Source: a virus. Taken from it: 39,051 bases of DNA. The DNA is taken from IMG/VR virus record IMGVR_UViG_3300036717_000119, positions 1-39,051 of that record. The stretch is one strand, 5' to 3'. The notes under the pieces were generated by a model that had not been told where the DNA came from, ran no database searches, and saw only the letters and a list, made by a program, of their open reading frames with translations. The position numbers were made by a program, and so were the translations under genes. This document shows, in pieces, positions 12,973 to 36,716 of this stretch (its first letter is position 1; every line of letters begins with the position of its first letter).

Positions 12973-15885
12973 TCAGGTGATAAGCGCCATCAATGCGGCC
13001 GTATCCGTGACGAACGCCGCGCACATCGGCTTTGAAACCGTCTGGCCGGTTGGGACCGGGCCAGCGATGGCGAGCGCCTGAATGTCCACGCGCTCGGTGC
13101 ACTGATACACAAGAGCATCGCTAGTGAATATCGGCCAGAGCACTTGGTTGATGGTGCCAGTGTTGAACGTCGCGAAGGAAACGAAGCTACCGCTGCGCAT
13201 GCATCCGACCGTAACCGCCACAGTCCCCGCCGTGCTCGCGATCCGGTTGACGGCCACCTTATAAATAAACCAACCGTAGGCCATCCCCTTCGAAGGAGCC
13301 GTGTCTGAGTTGTCGATTTTCTGCCACCCATTGTCGTGGGAGGAGCCGTTGTAATAGTTCGGCTGCCATTGGTCGTAGGCCCCCCAGATGGTGTTCCCGC
13401 TCACATTCGTGGGAGGCAATAGCCGGGTGATTGTCTCTGAATACCAATAGAACGGGTAGCGCGGTATATTCGGCTGGCGATGTTTGGCCGGCTTGATGGT
13501 CTGCCACCGGGCCGTGAGCTTCCATGTCAGGGTGTTGTCGGTAGTGCTGCCTCCGAGCGTGCCTGACCACGATGGCGCGCTCCCGCCGCTGGTGCCGGTT
13601 GCCTGCGCGGTCTGAATGTTGCCGTTGCTGTCGATGACGATTGCGCCGGACTGGTAAACTGTTGAGGCAACCCAAGTCGTTGCCGGGGCTGGGAAAAGCT
13701 TCGAGCAGTGCCACACCACGCCCCCGTCTGTTGTGCTGCCGCCAAGAGTGCTTGACCACCCAGGAGCCGACCCGCCGGACACTCCAGCCGTGAACACGGT
13801 CTGCAAATAGCCGTTGCTGTCGATGATCGTGAACCCGCCCGAAAAATAGGTGCTGGCCGCCCACGATGGCGGCTCCATCTGCTGTTCGACCGGGTTGCCT
13901 TGGTTGTAAGAGTTGGACACATGCGCGACAGCTGATCCGCCGCTTCCCGTGTTTGGCGCTTGGTCCCCAATGAGCATTGGGTTGACCAACACGGTTCCAG
14001 ATGGCGCGTATTGGTGCCGAGGAAGATTCCACGGCATCGATGTCTCAACCGCCAGGTTCTGTGACGAGATCGCCGGACTCATCGCGGTCCAGAATCCGGC
14101 CACCGTCTCGCTGATGCCCCAACCATTGCCAAATATCTTCTCGGGATTGTAGGTGATCGGCGTGGAGAACGTGCTACCGCCAGGCACGTCAGGCACGTTC
14201 CAGTAATCGTTGGGCAGATTCTGCACGTAGAGCAGCCCCGGCCCGTGCGACAAACCATCGCCCGGCAGTTGGATTTTTTTGACCGGCAGCGAATTGTGTA
14301 TCCCTGCGGTGGCGACCGCCGTGCTGTAATTAATGCTCGCAGTCACCGGCCCGAAAAGCTTCCCATTGCCGCCTGATCCATCACCCAATGGTGACGAGCT
14401 GTTGGGGAAAAGGCGTGTATATGTGGTCTGTGTACCGGTTATAGGAACTGATGTGTCATCCGGTAATTGTGGTATGTCCACCTCAAGTTCATACCGACCC
14501 GGTGCTAGAGTCGCGCTCACCGCTATTGAAATTTCGACAATCCCAATACTACAAAATCCTGTATCAGCCACATATGTAGAATAAGAAACTGAACCAGGAA
14601 ATGCATTATAACCACCACTAGGAGATAGATTTACAGACCAAAGCGTATTAGGGTCAACTGTATCGGGTGTAATGGTTGTGGTTGGTCCAGGGTATGTTAT
14701 CACAGCAGTCCCTCCACGCACATACTCCGCCAATATATGGAAGGTCCCACTAACAAAGAGAGAATCAACACCACCAACCACAAAGGCTTGTCGTTGCTTT
14801 GTTGTTACTGGATAATAGTATGGTGATAGTGGAAACGTTGACAAAAGCATACTGCAAACCGCATTCGTCCGCACCCCGCACGAAAACGGTCCCGCCCCAT
14901 AAAACTCACTCGCCACTGTGATCGTCGCCCCCGATCCCGTGTCGGCAAAATAGAACCAAGTCGACGCGTAATTGTCCGTCGGACCCGCCACCGGCCACGG
15001 CCCCGACACACACAGGGCAGCAGGTGAAATGTCCTGCATGAATGTGGTTGTCTCATCCACGCTCAACAAGTTCCACAGTGCCGCCCGGTTGCGGTTCAAT
15101 TCGGCAAGCCACGTCGGGCGCGCCGGCAGGATGAATAGCCCACCGAACGTAGCCCCAGTACCAAATCCGCCCGTGCATGGCATTGCCTGCGGATTCGTCG
15201 GCAACGTGATAGTCCAGACGTTAAAAGACGTGTTCGGCAGTGAGAATGTCAAAATCTTCCCGCTGCCATCCACCGTGGACACCGTCACCGGGAGAGCGCC
15301 GCCGCCGGACACCTGCGCGCCGGGAACGGTCAGGCTGTCGCCGGCATGGTAGCCGGTCCCGCCGTAGCAAAGGTAGAAGCCGGTGAATATTCCGTTACCC
15401 GGCGTATAGTCAGGATAGGAAAATGCCGCGTTCGGGCCGTACTGCGCGATGGTGAACGTGATTGTTGCCCCGGTGCCGCTGCTGGAAATATTCGTCAGCG
15501 CGCCCGGGGACGGGTCGTTGAACAGCGGCCAGAGCGGTGAGGAGGTCGAGTTGCCGCCAGGCGCGTAGCCGGGATTGGTCAGGGTCAGAAGTCCAATTAT
15601 CTCCCCATTCGGATCAACCAGAGTAACCTCGAATTCAGTCACCCCGATACCTACCGTGTCACCGACCGCGTAGCCGGTCCCCCCGGCGGTCAATGTGAAC
15701 GCGCCAAGCACCCGCAAACCATAAGCCGGCGTGGTTGGGTCCACATCCGATGGCACAAAATTCATCGGGTTGCACACCCAAAAAAATTCCGTGAGATCAA
15801 AATTCACCGAGCTAATCGCATTCGCCTGTGTGGCCAACGCCTGCAGGTCCGTCAGCTGAAATCGATTGCCGGGAGCTATAGCCAT
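12973..15885 (-). CDS. Large tail fibre / receptor-binding protein (970 aa)
   Basis: This is probably a virion protein contacting the host surface. It is the last and largest gene of the late unit. The N-terminal third contains repeated AGGTGYAVGDT and GGTGYHAGDSL turns typical of phage fibre beta domains. Residues about 670-760 hold two tandem modules of the type W-AST-Y-SG-x-IDSNG-x-QT-G-SGGSAP-W, ending WHCSK or WKLTA, as seen in many tail proteins. The middle is Gly/Pro/Thr-rich beta sequence without a recognised enzyme domain. No signal peptide. It overlaps the preceding gene by 10 nt. Confidence 0.75.
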   Translation of the reverse strand: MAIAPGNRFQLTDLQALATQANAISSVNFDLTEFFWVCNPMNFVPSDVDPTTPAYGLRVLGAFTLTAGGTGYAVGDTVGIGVTEFEVTLVDPNGEIIGLLTLTNPGYAPGGNSTSSPLWPLFNDPSPGALTNISSSGTGATITFTIAQYGPNAAFSYPDYTPGNGIFTGFYLCYGGTGYHAGDSLTVPGAQVSGGGALPVTVSTVDGSGKILTFSLPNTSFNVWTITLPTNPQAMPCTGGFGTGATFGGLFILPARPTWLAELNRNRAALWNLLSVDETTTFMQDISPAALCVSGPWPVAGPTDNYASTWFYFADTGSGATITVASEFYGAGPFSCGVRTNAVCSMLLSTFPLSPYYYPVTTKQRQAFVVGGVDSLFVSGTFHILAEYVRGGTAVITYPGPTTTITPDTVDPNTLWSVNLSPSGGYNAFPGSVSYSTYVADTGFCSIGIVEISIAVSATLAPGRYELEVDIPQLPDDTSVPITGTQTTYTRLFPNSSSPLGDGSGGNGKLFGPVTASINYSTAVATAGIHNSLPVKKIQLPGDGLSHGPGLLYVQNLPNDYWNVPDVPGGSTFSTPITYNPEKIFGNGWGISETVAGFWTAMSPAISSQNLAVETSMPWNLPRHQYAPSGTVLVNPMLIGDQAPNTGSGGSAVAHVSNSYNQGNPVEQQMEPPSWAASTYFSGGFTIIDSNGYLQTVFTAGVSGGSAPGWSSTLGGSTTDGGVVWHCSKLFPAPATTWVASTVYQSGAIVIDSNGNIQTAQATGTSGGSAPSWSGTLGGSTTDNTLTWKLTARWQTIKPAKHRQPNIPRYPFYWYSETITRLLPPTNVSGNTIWGAYDQWQPNYYNGSSHDNGWQKIDNSDTAPSKGMAYGWFIYKVAVNRIASTAGTVAVTVGCMRSGSFVSFATFNTGTINQVLWPIFTSDALVYQCTERVDIQALAIAGPVPTGQTVSKPMCAAFVTDTAALMALIT

Positions 15886-20229: not shown

Positions 20230-22668
20230 TCATGGGTGGAATGTCACCTGATTGGTTTTGGTCGAATCAATAGCTGCCACATAATTAACCCCCGAGACCG
20301 TGTTCGTTACCTGAAAACCCCATCCTGGCGGAACGTCAAACACCAGCGTGTCCTTGTTGGTAGCAATAATAGATGTTGCCCCTCCCGCAATGCTAACTTC
20401 ACCAATCGAAACGAATGCCCCACCAGCCGGCAGTTGCAGTTGCGCGTCCACCTCGGCGTTTCCAAGCGTGGTGGCGGGTGATGAAACTACCACCGGAATT
20501 TTCCAAGTCATGGTTTTAGTTCCCGTGTTTGTTTGAGTAAGTCCCGAAACAAAGTTTGTGAAGTAACTAACCGACTGGTTAGTCAGTCCAATCCCGTTTC
20601 CCGTGAACGTACCGCTTGCGGTCAACACCGTTGGAAATAACCCTGTTGGGATATAAGGAGTTTCTTGATGCAAAGGATCGCCCATGCCTGCGGCCAACAC
20701 GCCAAAATAGTCGCCATGCAAGCCGTCGTTGCCCATGTTGGTTAGCGCAAATGTAGCCGATCCATTGAAGTTTGAGCTGGCCCAGACGTTCCATTTGCCT
20801 GAATTTTGCGCGTTGATTGGATCACTCTCAGTGATGAAGTCCACGTCGCAATAATGGCTGACGTTGGGCATCATGTGATTGCGCAAAAGCGCGTTAAAGT
20901 TAGTGCGGTAGGTGTCGTTGCCATTGACCGTCTGGTTTGCCACAGTGAAGAAACCATCCGAACTGGTCGTGTATGGACTAAGGGTTTCGGCACACACTGG
21001 GACAGAAAATAGTCGGTAAAAGTTGGTAGCCACGTTGAGTAGCAACGACGGGGTGCCGGCGGTGAACTCATTAATTCCCAAGTCGGTCCAAATCACAGTC
21101 GCAAAATTGGTAAAAAACATCCGGTTCGTCGTGCCAGTGTAATTCACAAAACGATCGTATGGCTGAGACACGTTGCAAAAACCATAGTACGGCACAAACA
21201 ACCGTGCTATTCCGTTGACGAATGTAGGCATTGCGCCGCCGCTGGTTCCAATATAATTCACATCACCTACTCCCCAGTCGCGACTATCGCCCAGTATCAG
21301 GACTGATGCCTTGGTTGTGTTTCCAAGAATGGCTATCGGACCATACGAAAAGTTGCCCGTCCCCACACCGCCAGGAATTGTCGTATTCGTTGTTTGGTCT
21401 GATCCGGTTGCACCGAAAGAAGAGTATTCTAATGGACCAGTCCCGCTCGCAGATAGAATCACGCCCGCGCCGTTGGTGTAAAACGAACTAATATAAGCAA
21501 TGGCTCCCTGCGGTATCAATGGGCACGTCGTAACCAAACTTGCCGCCATCTGGCCATTGGGAATATTTGTGTACTGACCGCCGGCAAAAACTGCTTGGGA
21601 AACCCAATTGGAATAATGTATCGCACAAGATACAGTTGCAATCCCACCGGGGGCGGTTTCATTGTTTCCGTAAAAATTGGCATAATAAACTTGAAAATTT
21701 GTCATCGGACTTTCAGCAATAAACGGCTGCCAATCGTTTTCGACTTTATTCCCAGCAAATAAATTTTGTGGCACGTTGTCGTTTCCGGCAGCCACAAATC
21801 CCCAATAGGGGCGCACCGGTTGAATGCCCATCTGCGTTGGCGTGTTGTTCGTCGTCACCACGCTCCCCGGCAGGTTCGTCGGATTGACCGTCCCCACGAT
21901 GGCCGCGCCGGGCACATTCGTGATATTGGCCCCATTCAGTACCGGCGTCGACCCGTTCGTCACCACATTCACCGACTCGCTTAGATTTAATCCGCCGGCC
22001 CATGTCCCGACCACATTTCCGCCCGCGTCCCGCAGCGTCCGCGTGGTGGTGTTGATCGCCTGAAAGCCACCGATGAAATCGAAGCCTGTTAAGCCGTAAA
22101 CAGTCTCGCTGGCTGTCTGTGCCGTGCCATTCGTGGCCGTAAAATTGCCGCTCACCAGTAGCGTGTTGTTCACCGTCAGATTGTTGCTTAGGGTCACGGC
22201 GCTGGCGTTGTTGTTGGTAATGTAATAGCCCGGCAGTTGGGTGTTCAATGTTATGCTGCCGTCGCTGTTTGTAACAAAAACGAAATTCGTCCCCGCTATC
22301 AAGTTTGCCATGCCATTGGTGCCGAAATAAAACAGCGGTCCGGAAACAAGCAACGTCGTGACGTCGAGCACGTTCGTACTCGCCGGCACCGTGAACCGCA
22401 CCGGCTTTACCACGCCGGGCACCGTGAGTAGGTAGGTGTTCGGGTAGAGACCGACCACCGGGTTCGTCGTGCTGGCCGGAACAAGTGTATAGGTGCCAGC
22501 CCAAAGGTTTTGGCCGTCCGAAATCAGCGTGTTGGCCGCCGTCAAAGTCAGTTGCCGGTTATAAGCCGCCCCGCCAAAGAGCGTGTTGAGCGGGAATGAA
22601 ACCGAAGTTACCTGCGCGCAGGCCGACAACGTCAAACAGAGCAAAGCGAATGTGAATAATTTTTTCAT
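20230..22668 (-). CDS. Secreted or lipid-anchored tail-fibre-like protein with SGNH hydrolase domain (812 aa)
   Basis: The N-terminus MKKLFTFALLCLTLSACAQ is a signal peptide; LSAC (14-17) is a perfect lipobox, and ACA-Gln could also be a signal peptidase I site. Residues 20-280 are Thr/Asn/Val beta repeats with LNGANITNVPGAAIVGT, a common fibre motif. Residues about 450-665 form an SGNH/GDSL hydrolase: LILGDSRDWG with Ser462, DLGINEF with Asn533, and NDGLH with Asp648 and His651, plausible for an esterase removing acyl groups from surface glycans. A beta-rich tail follows. A virion fibre should not need export, so either it acts in the host envelope or the leader has another use. Confidence 0.75.
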   Translation of the reverse strand: MKKLFTFALLCLTLSACAQVTSVSFPLNTLFGGAAYNRQLTLTAANTLISDGQNLWAGTYTLVPASTTNPVVGLYPNTYLLTVPGVVKPVRFTVPASTNVLDVTTLLVSGPLFYFGTNGMANLIAGTNFVFVTNSDGSITLNTQLPGYYITNNNASAVTLSNNLTVNNTLLVSGNFTATNGTAQTASETVYGLTGFDFIGGFQAINTTTRTLRDAGGNVVGTWAGGLNLSESVNVVTNGSTPVLNGANITNVPGAAIVGTVNPTNLPGSVVTTNNTPTQMGIQPVRPYWGFVAAGNDNVPQNLFAGNKVENDWQPFIAESPMTNFQVYYANFYGNNETAPGGIATVSCAIHYSNWVSQAVFAGGQYTNIPNGQMAASLVTTCPLIPQGAIAYISSFYTNGAGVILSASGTGPLEYSSFGATGSDQTTNTTIPGGVGTGNFSYGPIAILGNTTKASVLILGDSRDWGVGDVNYIGTSGGAMPTFVNGIARLFVPYYGFCNVSQPYDRFVNYTGTTNRMFFTNFATVIWTDLGINEFTAGTPSLLLNVATNFYRLFSVPVCAETLSPYTTSSDGFFTVANQTVNGNDTYRTNFNALLRNHMMPNVSHYCDVDFITESDPINAQNSGKWNVWASSNFNGSATFALTNMGNDGLHGDYFGVLAAGMGDPLHQETPYIPTGLFPTVLTASGTFTGNGIGLTNQSVSYFTNFVSGLTQTNTGTKTMTWKIPVVVSSPATTLGNAEVDAQLQLPAGGAFVSIGEVSIAGGATSIIATNKDTLVFDVPPGWGFQVTNTVSGVNYVAAIDSTKTNQVTFHP

Positions 22669-27445: not shown

Positions 27446-27970
27446 TTACGGCGTCACCAGCCAGTCGATTTGCAAATTGAACCCGCCGTAATTGCCCGGG
27501 TTGTTGGTTCCGACAACGGTGAACGAGTACTTGTAAACACCGTACCCATCGCCCTGGGCCTGATTGATGTTCGTGGATGATCCGACGTAGGTATTCGACG
27601 CCGTGATATTGTTATTCCAAGTCAGCAACGGGTTGTAGGTCAATGCGAAATTGGTGCCCGCCGCCGGGTTGGTGTAATTGTTGTTCGGACCCACGACGCC
27701 GTAAAGGTTGAAGAAAACCTGATTGGTGCCGATGCCGTTAGTAGTGCCGCCATATGGCGAGTATTCAGACAGCAGAAAGTTTCCGTTGTGCCAGCCGGTG
27801 GGGTTCAGCTGGTTCGTCAGAAACCCGGTGTACGTCACGTTGTTCGTCACAAAGCCGTTGAAGGCCGTGTAAACGCGCGGCACAACATAAGTTTGCGCTT
27901 GCGCCGGAGCGGCCATGAAGAGCGCAGCCAAAAGCCCGAGGCTGACCGTGAATTTTTTGAGCATGTTCAT
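27446..27970 (-). CDS. Secreted protein with signal peptide, just after the capsid gene (174 aa)
   Basis: MNMLKKFTVSLGLLAALFMAAPAQA-Gln is a clear Sec leader with AQA cleavage near residue 25. The mature part is Asn/Thr/Tyr/Gly-rich beta sequence (YTAFNGFVTNNVTYTGFLTNQ, YNPLLTWNNNITASNTYVG, GGFNLQIDWLVTP) with no cysteine. It resembles a small surface or pilus-like domain more than a capsid protein. It lies between the major capsid gene and a strong terminator, so it should be expressed with the capsid at high level. Function unknown. Confidence 0.65.
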   Translation of the reverse strand: MNMLKKFTVSLGLLAALFMAAPAQAQTYVVPRVYTAFNGFVTNNVTYTGFLTNQLNPTGWHNGNFLLSEYSPYGGTTNGIGTNQVFFNLYGVVGPNNNYTNPAAGTNFALTYNPLLTWNNNITASNTYVGSSTNINQAQGDGYGVYKYSFTVVGTNNPGNYGGFNLQIDWLVTP

Positions 27971-27998: not shown

Positions 27999-29021
27999 TC
28001 AGCTGATGGCCACAAGCTGTATGCCGGTCGTGTGTTGGGTGTGGAGATACTCGAAGTTTTCCACCGTGAGGACGATTTTTTTGACGCCCAGTTCGGTGAC
28101 GTAAACCGCATATTCGCCGCCGCCGCCGGCGCCGTTCGTGACGTGCCGGACAAGGTTGGAAGCGTCCATCGGGGTTACGTCCTTGATGCCGGTGAAAATC
28201 AGGACGTTCTGGCCAATCAATTCCTGCTTGGCCGTCGCCGTGTTCTGGTAGCGTTCCATGTTGATCAGCGTGGAGGAAACGCCCAAGGCGGTCGCGAGCT
28301 GCTCCTCGTTGTACACGGAGGCCCGGGCCAGAGATCCGGCCGTAAGCTGGCTCTCGTAACTGGTCGCCCGCTTGAGGAACGCCGCGTCACCATACGCCAC
28401 GTTTTGCGCATAGAAGCCGGTGGTGTTCGCCGTGTTCAGGATGATGTTGCGGATGTCCAAATCAGGATTTGCCGCGCTGTCCCAGGTCTTTCCGGAGTTG
28501 ATTGCCGCCGCCGTGTAAATCGCAATGGCTTCCTGAACCGTGGCCCGGTTCAAGAGGTCGATCAACCACTTGGTGTGGATCTGCTGCCATTCGGGCTTGT
28601 CCTTGAGTTCGTCCCGGTCAAGCACCACGGACAAGCCGCGGTTGTTGATCTGGAAATCGCTCTTGGACGCAACGCGCTGACGAACCTCGGCGAAGTCGGC
28701 GAGGATTCCGCGTTTCACCTTGTTGTAATCAACGGTTTCCCATGGCTCGTTTTCGTTGTACGTCATCAGCCGGACGATGCGCGAGTTGCTGGGGCGGGGC
28801 GGGGCGAGATAATCGCGCAGACGGGACAGCCCGTTGCCCACCATGGAATCGTAGCTGGCGGCAAAGAGTGTCAGCTCCTCGATTTGCTCGACGGAGCGGA
28901 GGAGGGAATCATTGGACAGGCAGACGGTCCCGGAGGCCATGCTGCCAATGTCGTTGGAGAGCACCACGCCCGCGCTTTGGAGGGCGGCCTGGCGGGCGTT
29001 GGAAAGGGCAATTTGTTTCAT
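27999..29021 (-). CDS. Major capsid protein (340 aa)
   Basis: It follows protease, scaffold and decoration genes and precedes connectors, the normal place of the major capsid gene, and the 340-residue size fits an HK97-fold protein. Helical N-terminal part (RSVEQIEELTLFAASYDSM), then DYNKVKRGILADFAEVRQRV with charged beta segments resembling an E-loop region, spine-helix-like KWLIDLLNRATVQEAIAIYTAAAI, and a C-terminal beta domain. Three L-S-N motifs at 6-8, 21-23 and 35-37 may be processing sites. The start is preceded by an AATAAATACCGATT leader without a Shine-Dalgarno site. A 376-codon antisense ORF is a composition shadow. Confidence 0.7.
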   Translation of the reverse strand: MKQIALSNARQAALQSAGVVLSNDIGSMASGTVCLSNDSLLRSVEQIEELTLFAASYDSMVGNGLSRLRDYLAPPRPSNSRIVRLMTYNENEPWETVDYNKVKRGILADFAEVRQRVASKSDFQINNRGLSVVLDRDELKDKPEWQQIHTKWLIDLLNRATVQEAIAIYTAAAINSGKTWDSAANPDLDIRNIILNTANTTGFYAQNVAYGDAAFLKRATSYESQLTAGSLARASVYNEEQLATALGVSSTLINMERYQNTATAKQELIGQNVLIFTGIKDVTPMDASNLVRHVTNGAGGGGEYAVYVTELGVKKIVLTVENFEYLHTQHTTGIQLVAIS

Positions 29022-29033
29022 AATCGGTATTTA

Positions 29034-29603
29034 TTAGACCGGGTTGGTGGGATAGGTCAGGGTGCCGTTAGTGTTCACCAACTGGTAGGGGTCCACCGGC
29101 ACATAAGGCACTTCCATCGTTGAATTCGTTGCGGCGATGGTTGCGGCCGCGCGACCGACGACCCAGTAAGTGCCGTTGGCGACACCGGCTTGACTGATGT
29201 CTTGCACGCATCCGAGCGGGGCGGAGACCAACAGCTTGTCGATGGTGACAGCGGTGCCGGCGGCAGCGATGCCCATTTCAAGTCCGGGCCGAGCACCGAG
29301 CCGGCGAACTGCCATCACGTCGCCGATAGCGTATGGAGCGTCAGGGCTGGGTCCGAGAGGGAACGGGCCGCCCGCACCACCGTTGCATATATCGCCGTAT
29401 TGGTAGCCAGAGGCACCGCGCTTGATCAGCAAATAACGATTCGAGAAAGGCAGTGAGGTTGAGGCCGGGTCAACAAAAAGCGACTCAATGCCGTGCTCGT
29501 TGAACACGCCCAATGCATTGGCAAGGGCGATCTTTTTAGGGCGGTCGAATAAAGCGCGAAGCGTGCAAAGCATGAGCGCCAGTTTAATTTTCAGTTGTTT
29601 CAT
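29034..29603 (-). CDS. Head decoration protein, DUF2190-like (189 aa)
   Basis: It lies 12 nt upstream of the major capsid gene, where decoration proteins usually sit. The N-terminal 30 residues are basic and hydrophobic (MKQLKIKLALMLCTLRALFDRPKKIALAN). The body has repeated beta segments with Gly turns (FPLGPSPDAPYAIGDVMAVRRLG, GCVQDISQAGVANGTYWVVGRAAAT), like DUF2190-type capsid stabilising proteins. L-A-N at 27-29 could be a cleavage point that removes the odd N-terminus. The leader ACCAACCATCAACCAAACCA has no Shine-Dalgarno site. Confidence 0.55.
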   Translation of the reverse strand: MKQLKIKLALMLCTLRALFDRPKKIALANALGVFNEHGIESLFVDPASTSLPFSNRYLLIKRGASGYQYGDICNGGAGGPFPLGPSPDAPYAIGDVMAVRRLGARPGLEMGIAAAGTAVTIDKLLVSAPLGCVQDISQAGVANGTYWVVGRAAATIAATNSTMEVPYVPVDPYQLVNTNGTLTYPTNPV

Positions 29604-29636
29604 TGGTTTGGTTGATGGTTGGTTTTGTTGTGGCGC

Positions 29637-29873
29637 TTACTTTTTTACGGCGGCGGCGGCAGCCGCTTTGACGGCGAGATCGTGCTCGCGCTGACGCTTG
29701 ATGACGCCAAAAGCCTGTTCGCGAGTGAGGCCCAGAATCATTTTAGAGCGGATCTCAATTTCGTCCGCGCTGGCTTGCTTCTGTTGGGCCTGATATTCCG
29801 CAATCAGCTGGTTGGCGGCGGTCAGTTCGACCGTAAGCCGGTCGATGGTCTGCTTTGGAGTTTCGTCGGCCAT
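29637..29873 (-). CDS. Small coiled-coil head protein (78 aa)
   Basis: The start at 29873 gives MADETPKQTIDRLTVELTAANQLIAEYQAQQK... and a C-terminus KRQREHDLAVKAAAAAAVKK. It is entirely helical and charged, with SKMILGLTREQAFGVIKRQREHD in the middle. It begins 1 nt after the scaffold gene stop. Probable scaffold accessory or minor head protein by position; no family recognised. Confidence 0.55.
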   Translation of the reverse strand: MADETPKQTIDRLTVELTAANQLIAEYQAQQKQASADEIEIRSKMILGLTREQAFGVIKRQREHDLAVKAAAAAAVKK

Positions 29874-29874
29874 A

Positions 29875-30453
29875 TTATTGAGCTTTGGGGGTGATCTTGG
29901 TTGCGAGTCCGGCATATTTCGGCAACTTCATGACGTTGGCGTGCGCGGCGACCACGTTCTGGCCGGTGACGATGAGTTCGGCTTGCAGGGCGGCCTTGTA
30001 TTCCGCTGCCGTCTGCTCGGCCTCGTTTTCGAGTGCGGAATTCTGCTTGCCGCCGATGGCGTCCATCTTTCGGATCGGCTTCGCGGCGAGCAACGCGGCG
30101 GAATCCTTCGCAAAGTCGACGCTGTTTTCCAAGGCGGTAACGGTGGCGGCGCGGTCGGCCACATTTTTTGAGCCGCGTTGAATGGCGAGGTCGGCGGCCA
30201 GTTCGGCGGCCTGTTTGCGAGCTGCCTTGTGAGCGGCCTGCTCATTGGCGAGAGCGGTCTTTGACGCGGACAATTCGTTTTCGAGCGCCACGGACTTGGT
30301 CTCAAAGCTGTCCTTTTCGTTGGCCAGGGCGTTCGATTGCTCGTCGTTTTTCGCCGCCACTTTTTGCACGGCGGCGACAACCGCTTGATCGGAGGAGTCG
30401 TTGGCCAGGACGATCCCTTTCGCGGACAACCAACCCAGAAGAATTTGTTTCAT
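29875..30453 (-). CDS. Scaffolding protein candidate (192 aa)
   Basis: An Ala/Glu/Lys/Gln-rich helical protein between the protease and decoration/capsid genes, the usual position and character of a prohead scaffold. It starts MKQILLGWLSAKGIVLAND, very similar to the internal C-terminal module of the protease gene. It has six L-(A/E)-N tripeptides at 16-18, 43-45, 57-59, 68-70, 108-110 and 141-143, spaced through the coiled coil, as expected if a maturation protease cuts scaffold into pieces. The C-terminal 40 residues (VVAAHANVMKLPKYAGLATKITPKAQ) are less regular and may bind capsid protein. Confidence 0.65.
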   Translation of the reverse strand: MKQILLGWLSAKGIVLANDSSDQAVVAAVQKVAAKNDEQSNALANEKDSFETKSVALENELSASKTALANEQAAHKAARKQAAELAADLAIQRGSKNVADRAATVTALENSVDFAKDSAALLAAKPIRKMDAIGGKQNSALENEAEQTAAEYKAALQAELIVTGQNVVAAHANVMKLPKYAGLATKITPKAQ

Positions 30454-30490
30454 AAGTGTTTTTCTAATAGTTTGGTGATTTTGTCAATGA

Positions 30491-30841
30491 TTAGTTTTTG
30501 AATCGCGCAGCCCGGCCCATGTGATAATTGGCGGCCGCTTTGTGGAACTCGGCGGCGTCGGTATCGCCCGCCTTGTCGTGAGCAGCCGCCGCTTTCATGT
30601 GGGCCTGGGCGGCTGCATGATGGCTCGCCTTGTCATTCGCGTCGGCGGATTTCAGATGCGCCTGACGGCTCGCCTCATTCTCCTTGCCGTGCGCTTCGCC
30701 TCCGGCATATTGGTTTCCGTGAAATTCGTGACCGACGTAATCGCCATTTTGCAGCGCGGCCATGATTTCTTTTTCGCCTGCGTCGTTGGCAAGGGTAACT
30801 CCCTTGCCGATCAGCAGGCCGATTATTTGTTCTTGTAACAT
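30491..30841 (-). other. Possible internal start producing a scaffold-like protein from the protease gene
   Basis: An in-frame ATG at 30841 (codon 282 of the protease) follows AATAAACCAACCAAACACT, the same A/C-rich leader seen before independently started genes here. The product (116 aa) would begin MLQEQIIGLLIGKGVTLAND, matching the start of the scaffold gene. Nested scaffold starts within protease genes are known, for example lambda C/Nu3. Confidence 0.5.
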
Positions 30842-31684
30842 AGTGTTTGGTTGGTTTATTGGTGGAGCGGTAATTGGAGCGGGCAAATGTTGATTCGCGA
30901 GACTTTCCACTCCTGAAATATTCGGAAACTGCGTGAGCGCGACAGACAGCAGCTTGAACGGTCGCGCGCGGATCGCGTCCCCGTCGTTGCCAATGGGCTG
31001 AACCAGCCAGAACGCGGACGGCAATTTCCAGCCGGCAGCAACTGCGTCTGCCCCGTCATTATCAAGTGAGAAATGCGCTTCGATGCCGCGAGCTGTCTTG
31101 CGAATCTGATCCACCACGCCCAGCTTTATTTTCTTCGTCTCATTGCCCAACGCCTTGGGGTCGTGATCGTTCAAATCACCATGACCCTTAAAAATCGGGA
31201 TTCCGACAAACGCACGCTTGAGCTTTCGGAAAAATGAATTCTCGCCGTCCAACAGGGCGTCGGCGGATTGGTTGTCGAGCACCTGAATGAACTTCTGAGT
31301 TTTCAGCTGGCCATTCTCGCGATACAAGCGCGTCTTGGGATGGTCGCCAAACGGAGCGATCAAAGCCCATCCCTCATTATCCAGGGGCCCGGGCGCATCA
31401 TTGGCCAGCACCGGCTCGTCATCGCAACAGGCCGCCATGGCATCGTGGCCGCACGCAATGCCTTCATGCATCGCGGCGTTGCCTGGCTTGCCGTCTTCGG
31501 TCGCGCGTTTCGCCGCCACGCGATGAAGCTTGGCTGCCCGCGTATGCAAAACACTGTCCGCCTTGGCATGCGCTTCACCGCTGGCACTGTGCGCCGAACT
31601 GGCCGCGTCGGAAAGTTCCGCGCTAAAATTGCCGGCTTCCCCGCGCGTCTGGTCGGGGTCAAATGCGTTGGCTAATGGGATCAT
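30491..31684 (-). CDS. Mu gpI-like prohead protease with extra N- and C-terminal modules (397 aa)
   Basis: The central part (about 96-264) resembles Mu-type phage proteases: GWALIAPFGDHPKTRLYRENGQLKTQKFIQVLDN, FFRKLKRAFVGIPIFKGHGDL, IRKTARGIEAHFSLDNDGADAVAAGW, LPSAFWLVQP. The first 90 residues are an Ala/His/Ser-rich helical module. Residues 282-397 are a second module that starts like the scaffold protein and then has GDYVGHEFHGNQYAGGEAHG, a known phage head motif, and Ala/His helices. L-A-N motifs flank the protease core (93-95 and 262-264). It starts in ATGA overlap with the portal gene. Confidence 0.75.
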   Translation of the reverse strand: MIPLANAFDPDQTRGEAGNFSAELSDAASSAHSASGEAHAKADSVLHTRAAKLHRVAAKRATEDGKPGNAAMHEGIACGHDAMAACCDDEPVLANDAPGPLDNEGWALIAPFGDHPKTRLYRENGQLKTQKFIQVLDNQSADALLDGENSFFRKLKRAFVGIPIFKGHGDLNDHDPKALGNETKKIKLGVVDQIRKTARGIEAHFSLDNDGADAVAAGWKLPSAFWLVQPIGNDGDAIRARPFKLLSVALTQFPNISGVESLANQHLPAPITAPPINQPNTMLQEQIIGLLIGKGVTLANDAGEKEIMAALQNGDYVGHEFHGNQYAGGEAHGKENEASRQAHLKSADANDKASHHAAAQAHMKAAAAHDKAGDTDAAEFHKAAANYHMGRAARFKN

Positions 31685-33678
31685 GATTTTTTAGCGAGTG
31701 CTTTCGCCAGCTTTTGGGTTGTGAAATCGTTCAAAACTTTTGCCGCTTTCGGATACGCATTGATGTCGCCAAGCAGTTCAATCAGTGGACCGCGTTCAGC
31801 TACAAACTCTTTGAGTTTTTTCACCATGAGCGAATCATCCTTGATTTTTTCGATGGATTGCAAGGCATTTCGCACCGGGTCAAGATCGTCGGCGCGCGCA
31901 GCAGCCAATTGATTGGCCGGTTTCATTACTTCATTTTCCAGAGCGATCTTGCGGGTTTTTGAGGTCACCACACGCCGCAATGTTTGCGCGGCGCGCGTGT
32001 TGCCGAGGCCCAGCGAGTCCAACTCGACCAGCTTGGAATTCGGGATCGAGTAGCCCAACGCGGGCGATTGCAACCCGGCCTGACTCCATAGCCCGGCGTC
32101 ATCAACCTCGGGCGTGCCCATGCGCTTTGGAATTGGCATTTGACGCGAGGCCGCCTGCGAATAATAGGGAGCGCCCGGCTTGGCAAGGTCGGGATTGCGT
32201 TTCGGATCAGCTCCAGCTCCAATGGTGGCGTCTTGCGATTGCATTGCCGGCTGCGTTTCTTCTTTCGGCAACCCCCCATTAATGAGCGGGTCCGTCTCCT
32301 CACCGGTGGCATCGCTGGCGACAGGCGGCTTCGGTGGTGCCGCAGGTTTCGGCTTGGCCGCAGGTTTGGGTTGCCCGGGCTTGGCTGGCGCGTCCTCGTC
32401 ATCCTCTTGCGGAGGTCCTCCGGCACCCATTGGCGGGGCGGGCGGTTGCAAGCACGGCTCGCCGGCCTGGGGCACCGACCAGCGGAAACGCTTGTAAACT
32501 TCCTTCATCATCACCTTGAATCCCATTGGGACCAGCCCCTGCAGCGCCAGCAAATCATCGGGCGACGTGTCGGCAAGCGGCGGCATCAGGACGAACCACG
32601 CGCGCGGCTCCTGGTTGAACAGGTAACGGATAACTGGCCGGTCAATACGTTCGTTAAAAACTCCAGTGCACCATTTGGCGTCGCGGATCAGCAGAATGCC
32701 CGACTCCTCCTTTTGCACGCTCGCGCCAACGGCACCCTTGCCGCCGCCGCCAGATTGGCCGCCTTGACCGGCCTGAGAAGAGCGCGAACCGGTGGCGAGA
32801 TCCACGCCGCGGTAGCACTTGGCGTAAAGCCCATTGATGAACTCAATCATCGGATGGAACGGGGTCTGGTTGCGTGATTCCTGTTCGAGGAATTTCAGCT
32901 CCACCCCTTTGTTGTGCAGCGATGCACCGTCATTGGCCAAAGTTTGCAAGGCGGTCATTGCCTGCGTCCATTCAGGCGATCCCTCTTGCGCATCCGTTAT
33001 CGCTTCCAAAAATCCGCTGCCGTATCGCGTGTTGAACAGCATCCAGTCGCGCAACGAAAACATTTTCATAGCGTACGCAATTCCAAGCGAACGCATCCAA
33101 CCGATGTTAACCGCAGTCAACCATTCGCCTTGGACACACGGTATTCCGTACATGTCAAAGATGTGGGGCATGTAGCCGAGATAACCGCGCCGGCATTCAA
33201 AAAACCAGAGCGGCGTGTGCCGGAATTCGGCGGTGACTTCGCGGGCGCTGGCATTGTCCACGCGCAGCAGCATTTCATGAATGCTGAATTTGTAATCAAC
33301 GGCCGAGAAAACCTGATAGATCAATTCATCTGTGCCGCCGGTCGTGTCTTGTTCTAGCGCCTCGGTCGCCTGAACATTCTCGTAAAAATATTGGAGCGCC
33401 GCCGCGTGTTCGTCGCCGTCCGATGAGCCGTCCGAAACGATTTGCCATTCCATTCCGGTAGCATCGGATTTTCGTTTGTCGGAATTGACGGCCAGTTCGC
33501 CATCACGTTCCATCATCACTTCCCAGGTCTTGCCGATCTGTCGGAAATCACCAATCCGAAAGGCATTCATTTGCCGCGACAATTCATCCATGTCGAGCGA
33601 CGGCATGGGGGAATATTTGAGGCGGATGGCCCATTCGATGCGGGCCTGGTTAAATTGCGATGCGCCGGTTTGATTCAT
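31681..33678 (-). CDS. Portal protein, Mu gp29/DUF935-like (665 aa)
   Basis: Portals form the 12-subunit DNA channel at one capsid vertex. The DUF935 pattern is visible: ALQYFYENVQ, SAVDYKFSIHEML, HTPLWFFECRRGYLGY, MKMFSLRDWMLFNTRYG, LQTLANDGASLHNKGVELKFLEQ, GSRSSQAGQGGQ, FNERIDRPVIRYLFN. A Pro/Ala/Lys-rich linker (about 410-460) is followed by a C-terminal helical domain of about 200 residues, longer than usual for this family. The start overlaps the large terminase stop by 4 nt and the stop overlaps the protease start by 4 nt. Confidence 0.88.
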   Translation of the reverse strand: MNQTGASQFNQARIEWAIRLKYSPMPSLDMDELSRQMNAFRIGDFRQIGKTWEVMMERDGELAVNSDKRKSDATGMEWQIVSDGSSDGDEHAAALQYFYENVQATEALEQDTTGGTDELIYQVFSAVDYKFSIHEMLLRVDNASAREVTAEFRHTPLWFFECRRGYLGYMPHIFDMYGIPCVQGEWLTAVNIGWMRSLGIAYAMKMFSLRDWMLFNTRYGSGFLEAITDAQEGSPEWTQAMTALQTLANDGASLHNKGVELKFLEQESRNQTPFHPMIEFINGLYAKCYRGVDLATGSRSSQAGQGGQSGGGGKGAVGASVQKEESGILLIRDAKWCTGVFNERIDRPVIRYLFNQEPRAWFVLMPPLADTSPDDLLALQGLVPMGFKVMMKEVYKRFRWSVPQAGEPCLQPPAPPMGAGGPPQEDDEDAPAKPGQPKPAAKPKPAAPPKPPVASDATGEETDPLINGGLPKEETQPAMQSQDATIGAGADPKRNPDLAKPGAPYYSQAASRQMPIPKRMGTPEVDDAGLWSQAGLQSPALGYSIPNSKLVELDSLGLGNTRAAQTLRRVVTSKTRKIALENEVMKPANQLAAARADDLDPVRNALQSIEKIKDDSLMVKKLKEFVAERGPLIELLGDINAYPKAAKVLNDFTTQKLAKALAKKS

Positions 33679-35168: not shown

Positions 35169-35731
35169 ACCGCCTCCTCGCCAAACAGTTTGATTCGCGC
35201 CTGCTTGATCTTTTGTTCTTCCGTCAGGTTTGAATCGGCTTTGATGGACCGCAACGATTCGATTTGAGAAAGTGCCAGTTCGGCGGCGCGAAACTCGAAC
35301 TTATCGCGATCCAGTTTTAGATTTTGCGCTGCCAGATCCTGCTTTATTATTGCGACCCCCAAATCAAAATCACCAGTCTGCTCCGCTCGCCGGTATCCCT
35401 TGGACAATACCGCCTCGCGAGCCTGGTCGAGGCTCCATGTTGGATTATCTTCAATCGCACGCTTGAGCTCTTCGCGTTGCAGTTCGGCTTCCTCTCGATA
35501 CCTCAATTCATGTTGCCACCACGACCGGAATTTGGAGATGGTGCTGTCGTGTTTGATGTCAATATCGAGCCGCTTCAGAATTTCGGCGCGCACATCGAAC
35601 AGAGTTTTTTCCGGGCTCAAAAATAAGTCCATCCAGAAAGCGCGCTCCTCGTCGGTCATTGCCACCCACGCTTTTTTCAAATCGCCGATGGGCCCTGGAA
35701 TTGCCTTTCTCGAAAGCTGGGTGGAAATCAT
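35162..35731 (-). CDS. Terminase small subunit, Mu gp27/DUF3486-like (189 aa)
   Basis: This is the DNA-recognition partner of the large terminase. It is helical and charged, with IPGPIGDLKKAWVAMTDEERAFW, an HTH-like EILKRLDIDIKHDSTISKFRSWWQ segment (about 50-72), and a long C-terminal coiled coil, in the style of DUF3486. It lies directly upstream of the large subunit. The start overlaps the lipase stop by 4 nt. Confidence 0.75.
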   Translation of the reverse strand: MISTQLSRKAIPGPIGDLKKAWVAMTDEERAFWMDLFLSPEKTLFDVRAEILKRLDIDIKHDSTISKFRSWWQHELRYREEAELQREELKRAIEDNPTWSLDQAREAVLSKGYRRAEQTGDFDLGVAIIKQDLAAQNLKLDRDKFEFRAAELALSQIESLRSIKADSNLTEEQKIKQARIKLFGEEAVC

Positions 35732-36525
35732 AAAATCTGGACCGGATTGTTGATGCCATCCAGGGCGTTGATGTAATTTCCAACGTGATGATCAACGATT
35801 GGATCAAGCGCGGCGGTAAAATGCGACGTGGTCCATTTGCGCCAGATGCCCCAGGCATCAGATGCGAGCATGCGAATCAGCGGCGGATTGAACCAGAGAT
35901 CATCAATTGATTTGGTCGGTTGCAGGCTGGAGATAAAAACTTCGTTTCCGCCGTGCCAGTAGAGATCCCGAAATGATGGAATATGCGGAAACCTCGGAAC
36001 GATGTCCTCCTCAAATACCATGCGCCAGGTGCGATCTTTAAGCGCGGAGTCGTACCAATCCGCGAATGCTTTATTGCCGACGCGGGGTTGGCCAAACGTG
36101 TAAACCTGCGCGATGCTGAAACCGTTCCGGTGCAACTCCATTGCGGCGAGCACGGCCAGGGCACCGCCAAGCGAATGGCCTGTGACAAATATTGGCTTTG
36201 CGTGAATCGCGTTCGAGCAACCGCCCAGGGCCTCACATATGGCGATCAGCACAGAGTTTAGAGCCGCCTCAAAGCCGCGATGAACACGCACGTTTAGTCC
36301 GCCGGCCGACATGAGCAAGCGCCGCTCAAAGTCGGCATCGGTCAGCCAGTTGCGGATTGAGTGGGTGCCGCGAAACGCGATCACGGTTGAGTCCGGCAAC
36401 TGCTGGATTGTCAAATGCGTGTCGGTCGCTATCTCGCTAATGTCCGCCGCGGCGTATGCGCCGGCACTCGCTTTGCAGCAGTACCGGGCATTTTCAAGAT
36501 CGAAAAATTTGGCTTGGATGTTCAT
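35728..36525 (-). CDS. Class 3 lipase (alpha/beta hydrolase, 265 aa)
   Basis: It hydrolyses ester bonds, probably of glycerolipids or phospholipids. The class 3 lipase plan is complete: oxyanion loop VIAFRGTHSIRNWLTD (48-63), nucleophile Ser118 in FVTGHSLGGALA, YTFGQPRVGN (142-151), acid Asp174 in EEDIVPRFP, and His246 or His247 in VDHHVGNYINAL. ATG at 36525 is preferred over an upstream in-frame start because it makes a 4-nt overlap with the zinc-ribbon gene. There is no signal peptide. It is the gene just before the terminase, an unusual place for such an enzyme; a role in host lysis is the main suggestion. Confidence 0.88.
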   Translation of the reverse strand: MNIQAKFFDLENARYCCKASAGAYAAADISEIATDTHLTIQQLPDSTVIAFRGTHSIRNWLTDADFERRLLMSAGGLNVRVHRGFEAALNSVLIAICEALGGCSNAIHAKPIFVTGHSLGGALAVLAAMELHRNGFSIAQVYTFGQPRVGNKAFADWYDSALKDRTWRMVFEEDIVPRFPHIPSFRDLYWHGGNEVFISSLQPTKSIDDLWFNPPLIRMLASDAWGIWRKWTTSHFTAALDPIVDHHVGNYINALDGINNPVQIL

Positions 36526-36716
36526 GTGGTTCGAGTCGTGAATTTTGGACAATCGAAAATCAGCACAGAGGTCTTGCGGCGGGCGTTCGTCTTGTACGGG
36601 CCGCCAACGCAGCCCGCTTCCTCCAATCGTTTGCACCGATCGCAAACTGGCGATCCCTTTTTCACCTCCAACGCCAGCCGGCCGCAATCACAGTGCATGA
36701 TCTTGGCGGTCTTCAT
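36522..36716 (-). CDS. Small zinc-ribbon protein (64 aa)
   Basis: Cys9-x-Cys11 and Cys25-x-x-Cys28 (HCDCGR ... VCDRCKR) form a likely zinc site, followed by a basic, unstructured C-terminus (KTNARRKTS). It lies 3 nt after the outer membrane protein gene and overlaps the lipase start. A role in nucleic-acid binding or as a late regulator is possible; no family is recognised. Confidence 0.65.
   Translation of the reverse strand: MKTAKIMHCDCGRLALEVKKGSPVCDRCKRLEEAGCVGGPYKTNARRKTSVLIFDCPKFTTRTT

What the first reader, a model, noticed from the sequence alone, without database searches (positions are those of the whole stretch)
27999..31684. Repeated Leu-x-Asn motif in protease, scaffold, decoration and capsid proteins: candidate maturation cleavage code
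Seen: L-A-N, L-E-N or L-S-N, usually followed by Asp or Glu, occurs six times in the 192-residue scaffold, three times in the first 37 residues of the capsid protein, at 27-29 of the decoration protein, and in the protease on both sides of its core (93-95, 262-264) as well as at 4-6 and 298-300. Known: T4 prohead protease cuts after (Leu/Ile)-x-Glu in scaffold, capsid and itself. Inference: this protease uses L-x-N, freeing its own core, chopping the scaffold and trimming capsid and decoration N-termini.
Basis: partly seen in the sequence, partly recalled or inferred. Interest (0 to 1): 0.74.

Follow-up and report, generated by a model that had tools for sequence, protein, structure and literature searches.

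The report
Predicted Leu-x-Asn phage protease cut sites
A little-known group of Mu-like phages carries a short repeated signal, leucine-any-asparagine, just where a head-building protease would have to cut its own protein, the scaffold, the shell proteins and attached cargo, so the protease's preference can be read from sequence alone and tested at the bench.

Summary
L..N at spacing +2 ranks first of 1600 residue-pair tests in the window's candidate segments (15 seen, 2.7 expected, P=1.6e-7). It ranks first of 1200 in 8 of 8 related phages; segment edges were partly motif-informed. The same scan of T4 returns T4's known code, L-x-E then I-x-E, on top. A strict form occurs 25.5 times per 1000 residues in predicted cut segments, 1.9 elsewhere in head proteins and 1.1 in 131 other genes. 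In the cement-protein leader the only invariant residues besides Met1 are this Leu and Asn. The protease is a divergent Mu-type head maturation protease. Best reading: it cuts after (A/V)-L-x-N, freeing its core, shredding the scaffold and trimming capsid and cement proteins, as T4 gp21 does with (L/I)-x-E. Distant relatives often keep Asn but drift at P3; B3-type phages look like F-x-E. New here: a portal-tail site, cargo domains behind sites in the protease and, in one relative, a PBECR3 nuclease on the portal. No cleavage has been shown experimentally; both structure models were poor.

The parts
30491..31684 (-). Head maturation protease polyprotein, 397 aa: N-terminal cargo-like helical domain (about 7-92), protease core (about 96-264), scaffold-start-like segment (281-300), C-terminal cargo-like domain (301-397)
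   Evidence: PF10123 Mu-like_Pro E=1.4e-4, 21.9 bits, below the 25.2 cut-off; phrog_328 head maturation protease E=4.3e-4; hhalign of core profile to Mu-type proteases Prob 79.5, E=1.5e-5; candidate catalytic Ser223 kept in 40 of 40 aligned proteases
31667..31675 (-). L-x-N site, protease 4-6 (PLAN|A), before the N-terminal domain
   Evidence: conserved in L003 as ALAN|AFDPDQT
31400..31408 (-). L-x-N site, protease 93-95 (VLAN|D), N-terminal edge of protease core
   Evidence: an L-x-N site upstream of the core in 8 of 8 lineages
30893..30901 (-). L-x-N site, protease 262-264 (SLAN|Q), C-terminal edge of protease core
   Evidence: L262, A263, N264 invariant in 8 of 8 lineages
30785..30793 (-). 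L-x-N site, protease 298-300 (TLAN|D), in a copy of the scaffold start
   Evidence: N300 invariant in alignment A7
30746..30754 (-). Weaker L-x-N, protease 311-313 (ALQN|G), directly before the GDYVGHEFHGNQY cargo linker
29875..30453 (-). Scaffold protein, 192 aa, with six L-x-N sites
   Evidence: homologous to the C-terminal part of the fused protease-scaffold ORF in L003, L004, L008, L015, L023, L029
30400..30408 (-). Scaffold site 16-18 (VLAN|D)
30319..30327 (-). Scaffold site 43-45 (ALAN|E)
30277..30285 (-). Scaffold site 57-59 (ALEN|E; ALAN|E in near-identical L002)
   Evidence: Asn kept in only half of the lineages
30244..30252 (-). Scaffold site 68-70 (ALAN|E)
30124..30132 (-). Scaffold site 108-110 (ALEN|S)
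30025..30033 (-). Scaffold site 141-143 (ALEN|E)
29034..29603 (-). Cement ('decoration') protein, 189 aa, leader 1-29 then mature part
   Evidence: linked by profile to distant homologues (Prob 98.8, E=7.9e-17), and those to B3-type cement proteins (Prob 92.6, E=4.5e-7); two of four distant homologues tried match PF09956 at E<1e-4, one of them above the Pfam cut-off
29517..29525 (-). Cement-protein site 27-29 (ALAN|A)
   Evidence: L27 and N29 are the only invariant residues of 1-29 besides M1 in 8 lineages
27999..29021 (-). Major capsid protein, 340 aa, leader 1-37 then mature part from D38
   Evidence: profile match to distant capsids (Prob 100, E=1.6e-45), and those to B3-type capsids (Prob 97.2, E=4.5e-11)
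28998..29006 (-). Capsid site 6-8 (ALSN|A)
   Evidence: not kept in every relative
28953..28961 (-). Capsid site 21-23 (VLSN|D)
   Evidence: L21, N23, D24 invariant in 8 lineages
28911..28919 (-). Capsid site 35-37 (CLSN|D), predicted final trimming site
   Evidence: L35, N37 invariant in 8 lineages, directly before the conserved block
31681..33678 (-). Portal protein, 665 aa, with variable C-terminal tail
   Evidence: PF06074 Portal_Mu E=7.2e-39
31933..31941 (-).
   Evidence: portal tails of 8 of 8 lineages hold at least one L-x-N, at shifting positions

Best explanation
The phage encodes a Mu-type head maturation (prohead) serine protease whose cleavage signal is (A/V/S)-L-x-N, with cutting most likely after the Asn (P3 Leu, P1 Asn, P2 free, P1' Glu/Asp/Ala/Ser). 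Inferred sequence of events: protease polyprotein, scaffold, capsid, cement protein and portal co-assemble into a prohead; the protease frees its own core (about residues 96-264) by cutting at 93-95 and 262-264, cuts the scaffold at up to six places so the pieces can leave, removes capsid residues 1-37 and the cement leader 1-29, cuts the portal tail, and frees domains tethered to the protease. Shown by computation: the sites, their non-random enrichment, their placement, their conservation with a free middle residue, and the identity of the proteins. Inferred: that they are cut, after Asn, by this protease, and the order of events. The code appears to drift between Mu-type phages (often Asn at P1 with varying P3 and P1' in distant relatives of this window; F-x-E in B3-type phages).
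For: L..N(+2) is rank 1/1600 in the window and rank 1/1200 in 8/8 lineages, P 1.7e-4 to 1.8e-8, but rank 5 to 701 in the other segments. Positive control: the same scan on T4 gp67, gp68, gp21, gp22 and gp23 1-80 returns L..E then I..E, the published L/I-X-E (PMC9026906 passages). Cross-prediction from the scaffold alone works in 8/8 lineages. First 50 residues hold the strict motif in 8/8 capsids and 8/8 cement proteins versus 2/131 control genes. P3 Leu is 100% and P1 Asn 90% conserved at the six scaffold sites, P2 62%, all columns 66%. Only invariant residues in the cement leader: M1, L27, N29; capsid leader 1-37: 8/37 invariant, including L21, N23, L35, N37. Codons vary (47 different 9-mers at 97 sites), so selection is on the protein. 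Candidate catalytic Ser223 in 40/40 aligned Mu-type proteases. Distant relatives: position-picked capsids carry a related x-x-N pattern near their start in 11 of 14, controls 7 of 149.
Against: No experimental cleavage data were found for this group. L-x-N also lies inside folded regions (protease 136, 179, 207; portal 247, TLAN|D, strict motif) and would have to be shielded. L..N is also mildly enriched in the window's other segments (13 seen, 6.8 expected). Segment boundaries and the pattern were set after seeing sequences; the 8 lineages are homologous, not independent. Scaffold site 57 keeps Asn in only half of the lineages, site 16 is LSP in L005. Cut register (after Asn, not before it) is by analogy. 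Mu's own capsid start is annotated as confirmed by protein sequencing, and capsid residues 2-14 are described in mature JBD30 heads (passage), so trimming of the capsid is not general in Mu-like phages. The AlphaFold models are poor (pLDDT 48.1 and 37.7).
Confidence: 0.87

Rival explanations
1. The motif is a by-product of coiled-coil composition: ALENE/ALANE runs are common in coiled coils such as leucine zippers (recalled), and the scaffold is such a protein.
For: The scaffold is Ala/Leu/Glu rich and likely helical (sequence); LENE-type runs are known from coiled coils (recall, no call).
Against: Sites are out of heptad register (P3 positions mod 7 = 2,1,1,5,3,1). The motif is enriched against composition-preserving shuffles and sits in capsid, cement, protease and portal segments. 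P3 and P1 are conserved while P2 between them is free.
Confidence: 0.05
2. L-x-N with its flanking helix is a docking or head-targeting signal rather than a cut site: capsid, scaffold and the protease C-terminal part share a G-hydrophobic-x-L-x-N leader.
For: G[VILMYA]x(1-2)L-x-N occurs in 8/8 capsid leaders and at the scaffold start in 7/8 lineages. T4 capsid targeting sequences combine targeting and cleavage in ten residues (passages).
Against: Most scaffold sites, the cement site and the portal-tail site lack that leader. Sites bracket the protease core on both sides. The conservation step at capsid residue 38 fits a removed propeptide. Dual use, as in T4, is possible and not excluded.
Confidence: 0.06
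3. The sites are cut by a host or other protease, or only some of them (protease and scaffold) are cut while capsid and cement leaders stay.
For: In Mu the capsid start is annotated as confirmed by sequencing although Mu has a homologous protease; the capsid 6-8 site is not kept in all relatives.
Against: The capsid and cement Leu and Asn are the most conserved residues of their leaders. B3-type capsids, to which these are related, have no comparable leader before the homologous block.
Confidence: 0.1

Closest known systems
T4 gp21 prohead protease and its L/I-X-E sites
   Same: Three-residue signal with P3 Leu, free P2 and fixed P1; many copies in scaffold, sites at the protease's own ends and in leaders of capsid and internal proteins (PMC9026906 passages)
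   Different: P1 is Asn, not Glu; the protease is Mu-type, not gp21-type; cement protein and portal tail are predicted substrates; no experiment yet
Giant-phage prohead proteases (SPN3US gp245, phiKZ gp175)
   Same: Short repeated motif in propeptides; for SPN3US the motif A-X-E was derived from mass spectrometry (PMC10052503 passages)
   Different: P1 Glu; large internal-head proteome; unrelated head module
Mu gpI protease / gpZ scaffold (PF10123, phrog_328)
   Same: Protease-scaffold gene order with scaffold read from within or behind the protease gene; profile relationship; candidate catalytic Ser shared
   Different: Mu shows A-L-S(-A)-type repeats instead of L-x-N (reading by eye; L..S and S..A at +1 are ranks 2 and 3); its capsid is a different family (no profile match) and starts at its predicted start
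B3-type transposable phages
   Same: Capsid and cement proteins are related by profile through the distant set; protease-scaffold ORF with its own repeated motif
   Different: The repeated pair is F..E(+2) in B3, PhiKM and Suso (rank 1); capsids have no leader; direct profile match of the proteases is absent (Prob 0.4)
Polyvalent / MuF / portal-fused phage toxins (PBECR and others)
   Same: Relative L003 carries a PBECR3 domain at the portal C-terminus (PF18812 E=9.6e-20); PBECR fusions to MuF and portal domains are published (PMC5512222 passages)
   Different: Here an L-x-N site (ALAN|AGDIPGHAFRGNQY) lies between portal and toxin, so release by the head protease is predicted. In the passages seen, PMC5512222 suggests autoproteolysis by metallopeptidase domains and processing by assemblin-like peptidases fused to polyvalent proteins; PMC5576092 passages do not discuss cleavage

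Membership tests
Mu-type head maturation protease (PF10123 / phrog_328) | Profile match | tested here: inconclusive
   PF10123 E=1.4e-4 but 21.9 bits, below the 25.2 cut-off; phrog_328 E=4.3e-4; hhalign to six Mu-type proteases Prob 79.5, E=1.5e-5 over 143 columns
Mu-type head maturation protease (PF10123 / phrog_328) | Conserved candidate active-site residues | tested here: met
   Ser223 in 40/40 aligned proteases (8 clade, 16 distant, 16 isolates); His168 aligned in 8/8, 13/16 and 9/16, the rest gapped in the alignment. That these are catalytic is inference
Mu-type head maturation protease (PF10123 / phrog_328) | Gene order terminase-portal-protease/scaffold-cement-capsid | tested here: met
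Mu-type head maturation protease (PF10123 / phrog_328) | Scaffold encoded within or directly behind the protease gene | tested here: met
   Fused ORF in L003, L004, L008, L015, L023, L029; separate gene in window and L005. Use of an internal start was not tested
Mu-type head maturation protease (PF10123 / phrog_328) | Proteolytic activity | not testable with these tools
T4 gp21 type (works like it) | Cleavage motif (L/I)-x-E | tested here: not met
   L..N, not L..E or I..E, is rank 1 in 8/8 lineages. Hence not filed as a member, only as an analogue
T4 gp21 type (works like it) | Repeated tripeptide in scaffold, capsid leader and protease ends | tested here: met
   T4 control
Assemblin-like protease fold | Detectable relation to a solved structure | tested here: inconclusive
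   No PDB sequence match at E<=1 for the protein; the A6 profile gave only an unrelated hit at E=0.32; model pLDDT 48.1 too poor for a fold search, none was run
Portal-fused PBECR toxins | PBECR domain on the portal | tested here: met
   In relative L003 only; a second contig, L018/L090, carries the same extension. The window's portal lacks it

The most novel reading that the evidence does not exclude
In Mu-type phages the protease-scaffold gene spells out its own protease's specificity as a repeated tripeptide, the code drifts between lineages (L-x-N here, other x-x-N codes in distant relatives, F-x-E in B3-type phages), and the same code works as a release tag: domains attached to the protease or portal, including a PBECR3 RNase-like toxin in a relative, sit behind a cut site so that they ride into the head as part of a structural protein and are set free there for injection.
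Probability: 0.45. Interest if true: 0.78.

Novelty: new variant of a known kind. Interest (0 to 1): 0.64.

Why it matters
Few prohead protease specificities are known, and those named in the passages read end in Glu at P1 (T4, phiKZ, SPN3US). A predicted Asn-specific head protease in a Mu-type background would widen the range. If a protease's signal can be read off its scaffold, as the T4 control suggests, mature ends of virion proteins could be predicted for many uncultivated phages. The cargo arrangement gives a testable route by which portal-fused toxins could become free inside the head.

Tried and rejected
Structure prediction: capsid model pLDDT 37.7 and protease model 48.1, both from 8-row alignments, are too poor to use; in the protease model 93-95 and 262-264 fall in segments without helix or strand, noted only as consistent. 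No fold search was run on them. PDB sequence searches gave nothing useful. NCBIfam gave nothing. tblastn of window capsid, protease and portal against named phages gave no match. Direct profile match of this protease core to B3-type proteases failed (Prob 0.4). In D3112-like, Klebsiella, RcapMu, TJ1 and other isolates no clear code emerges from one protein, so the general claim that every Mu-type phage spells its code is not established. Among 16 distant loci the rank-1 pair contains Asn in 9 and does not in 7 (core left out); among 16 named isolates in 0 of 16 (whole protein, core included, so not the same cut of the data). The distant capsid and cement sets used for profiles had been picked by motif strings; the position-and-size pick is the fairer count, though its pattern was written after looking. 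Coiled-coil, DNA-element and docking rivals were considered.

Rows dropped before counts: L002 (near-identical to the window), L006 and L007 (as L005), L018 (as L003), and loci that are re-fetched stretches of the same contigs (L009-L014, L016, L017, L019-L022, L024-L028, L030-L032). Of 23 matches, 16 were read further; not taken: L033 (same as L023), L054 (second copy in one genome), L046, L048, L050, L052, L053 (weak, partial or oddly built).


Full report
What is there. The window is a 39-kb virus record from IMG/VR. On its minus strand lie, in order, the terminase large subunit, a Mu-type portal (PF06074, E=7.2e-39), a protease, a scaffold, a small protein, a cement protein and the capsid protein. 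The capsid and cement labels, which no library confirms directly, are supported by a profile chain: clade capsid to distant capsids Prob 100, E=1.6e-45, distant capsids to B3-type capsids Prob 97.2, E=4.5e-11; clade cement to distant cement Prob 98.8, E=7.9e-17, distant cement to B3-type cement Prob 92.6, E=4.5e-7. Distant cement proteins match PF09956 Phage_cement_2 at E<=0.1 in 3 of 4 tried, one above the Pfam cut-off. The distant sets had been picked with motif strings.

The observation. In the window, L[AES]N occurs 6 times in the scaffold (0.41 expected from shuffles), 3 times in capsid 1-45 (0.14), twice in protease 1-98 (0.08), twice in protease 260-397 (0.18), and 0 times in the protease core, the rest of the capsid and the rest of the cement protein. 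Testing all residue pairs at spacings 1 to 4 in the candidate segments (1600 tests), L..N at +2 comes first: 15 seen, 2.68 expected, P=1.6e-7; the next is N..D(+1) at 1.4e-3.

Relatives. Scans of viral and genome contigs gave seven further distinct lineages: L003, L004, L005, L008, L015, L023, L029. In each of the 8 lineages L..N(+2) is rank 1 of 1200 pair tests in the predicted substrate segments (protease N- and C-flank, scaffold, capsid leader, first 40 residues of the cement protein, portal tail), P from 1.7e-4 to 1.8e-8; in the remaining segments it ranks 5 to 701. The boundaries were drawn from conserved blocks but with the motif in mind. A fairer version learns the motif from the scaffold part alone: L..N is rank 1 in 7 of 8 and rank 2 in L023; the other segments then hold 7 to 10 L-x-N against 1.3 to 3.2 in shuffles, P<=0.002 in 8 of 8. 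Strict motif density is 110 in 4321 residues (25.5 per 1000), 26 in 13406 (1.9), and 41 in 37643 residues of 131 control genes (1.1). The first 50 residues hold the strict motif in 8/8 capsids, 8/8 cement proteins, 6/8 proteases and 2/131 controls.

Conservation has the shape of a protease signal. At the six scaffold sites P3 Leu is identical in 100% of rows, P1 Asn in 90% on average, P2 in 62%, against 66% over all columns; site 57 is the weak one (Asn in half). Across 128 L-x-N in substrate segments P4 is Ala in 55%, P2 mostly Ala, Gly, Glu, Ser or Pro, P1' Glu, Asp, Ala or Ser in 92% together. In the cement leader (1-29) the invariant residues are M1, L27, N29; in the capsid leader (1-37) they are M1, G18, L21, N23, D24, G31, L35, N37, 8 of 37, against 148 of 303 afterwards. 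The near-identical relative L002 differs from the window in the scaffold triplets only at a free P2 (ALEN to ALAN at 57). Leu and Asn codons vary (five Leu codons, both Asn codons, 47 different 9-mers at 97 sites), so the constraint is on protein.

Positive control. The same scan on T4 gp67, gp68, gp21, gp22 and gp23 1-80 puts L..E(+2) first and I..E(+2) second. That is the published specificity L/I-X-E (PMC9026906, passages).

The protease. It matches PF10123 and phrog_328 weakly and Mu-type proteases by profile comparison (Prob 79.5, E=1.5e-5), with an aligned Ser223 in 40 of 40 proteases. In L003, L004, L008, L015, L023 and L029 protease and scaffold form one ORF; in the window and L005 they are separate, and the window's protease still carries a copy of the scaffold start (TMLQEQIIGLLIGKGVTLAND beside MKQILLGWLSAKGIVLAND). 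In place of the scaffold it has a C-terminal domain led by GDYVGHEFHGNQY.

Distant relatives. A profile search of 387 genomes of the phylum of L023's genome found Mu-type proteases in 21. Of 16 loci read further, the rank-1 pair outside the core contains Asn in 9 (L..N, A..N, I..N, N..E, N..T, N..R) and not in 7. Capsids picked by position and size carry [LVAIF][ASGC]N[EDASVI] in their first 60 residues in 11 of the 14 loci that have one, against 7 of 149 control ORFs; the pattern was written after looking. The three without (L068, L072, L073) have N-R or I-x-N type proteases and capsids without leaders. Named isolates look different: F..E(+2) is rank 1 in B3, PhiKM and Suso, L..A(+2) in the Vibrio phage, and none of 16 has Asn in its rank-1 pair; in most of the 16 no clear code emerges. 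So drift of the code is suggested, not proven.

Cargo. L-x-N sites stand before domains that lie outside the core: PLAN|AFDPDQTRGEAGNF at the protease N-terminus, ALQN|GDYVGHEFHGNQY at its C-terminus, and in L003 ALAN|AGDIPGHAFRGNQYT on the portal, followed by a PBECR3 nuclease domain (PF18812, E=9.6e-20, above the Pfam cut-off). Portal-PBECR fusions are known (PMC5512222, passages); release by the head protease at this site is my inference. A scan for further copies found only two contigs that carry the same extension.

How it most likely works, and novelty. Like T4: self-release of the protease core, shredding of scaffold, trimming of shell leaders, plus a portal-tail cut. Literature searches (open-access PMC full text only) listed no paper that I recognised as describing an L-x-N or Asn-specific head protease; I judged from listings and passages, not whole papers. 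I rate it a new variant of a known kind.

Noticed in passing
L003 6009-6461 (portal residues about 689-838): Portal of a relative carries a PBECR3 RNase-like domain behind an L-x-N site; same portal extension on a second contig (L018/L090).
   Followed up: partly
window 27446-27970 (-): Gene right after the capsid gene encodes a 174-aa protein with a signal-peptide-like start (MNMLKKFTVSLGLLAALFMAAPAQAQ); distant loci L060, L070 and L072 also have a small protein with such a start behind the capsid gene. A secreted-looking protein within a head operon is odd.
   Followed up: no
window 30491-31684 (-), residues 281-300 versus 29875-30453 (-), residues 1-19: The protease C-terminal part holds a diverged copy of the scaffold start, as if a fused protease-scaffold gene had been split by duplication with a cargo domain inserted.
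   Followed up: partly
window 27999-29021 (-), residues 1-24, and 29875-30453 (-), residues 1-18: Capsid and scaffold leaders look alike (MKQI...G-V/I-V-L-x-N-D), possibly a shared head-targeting leader as in T4.
   Followed up: partly
L059, L062, L063, L066, L070, L074 cement proteins, N-termini: Several distant cement proteins have a hydrophobic, membrane-helix-like leader before the x-x-N site.
   Followed up: no
window 12973-15885 (-), 20230-22668 (-), 35728-36687 (-), 2458-3552 (-): PHROG hits: head-decoration-like domains in a 970-aa protein, lysophospholipase-L1-like esterase, esterase/lipase, DNA methyltransferase.
   Followed up: no
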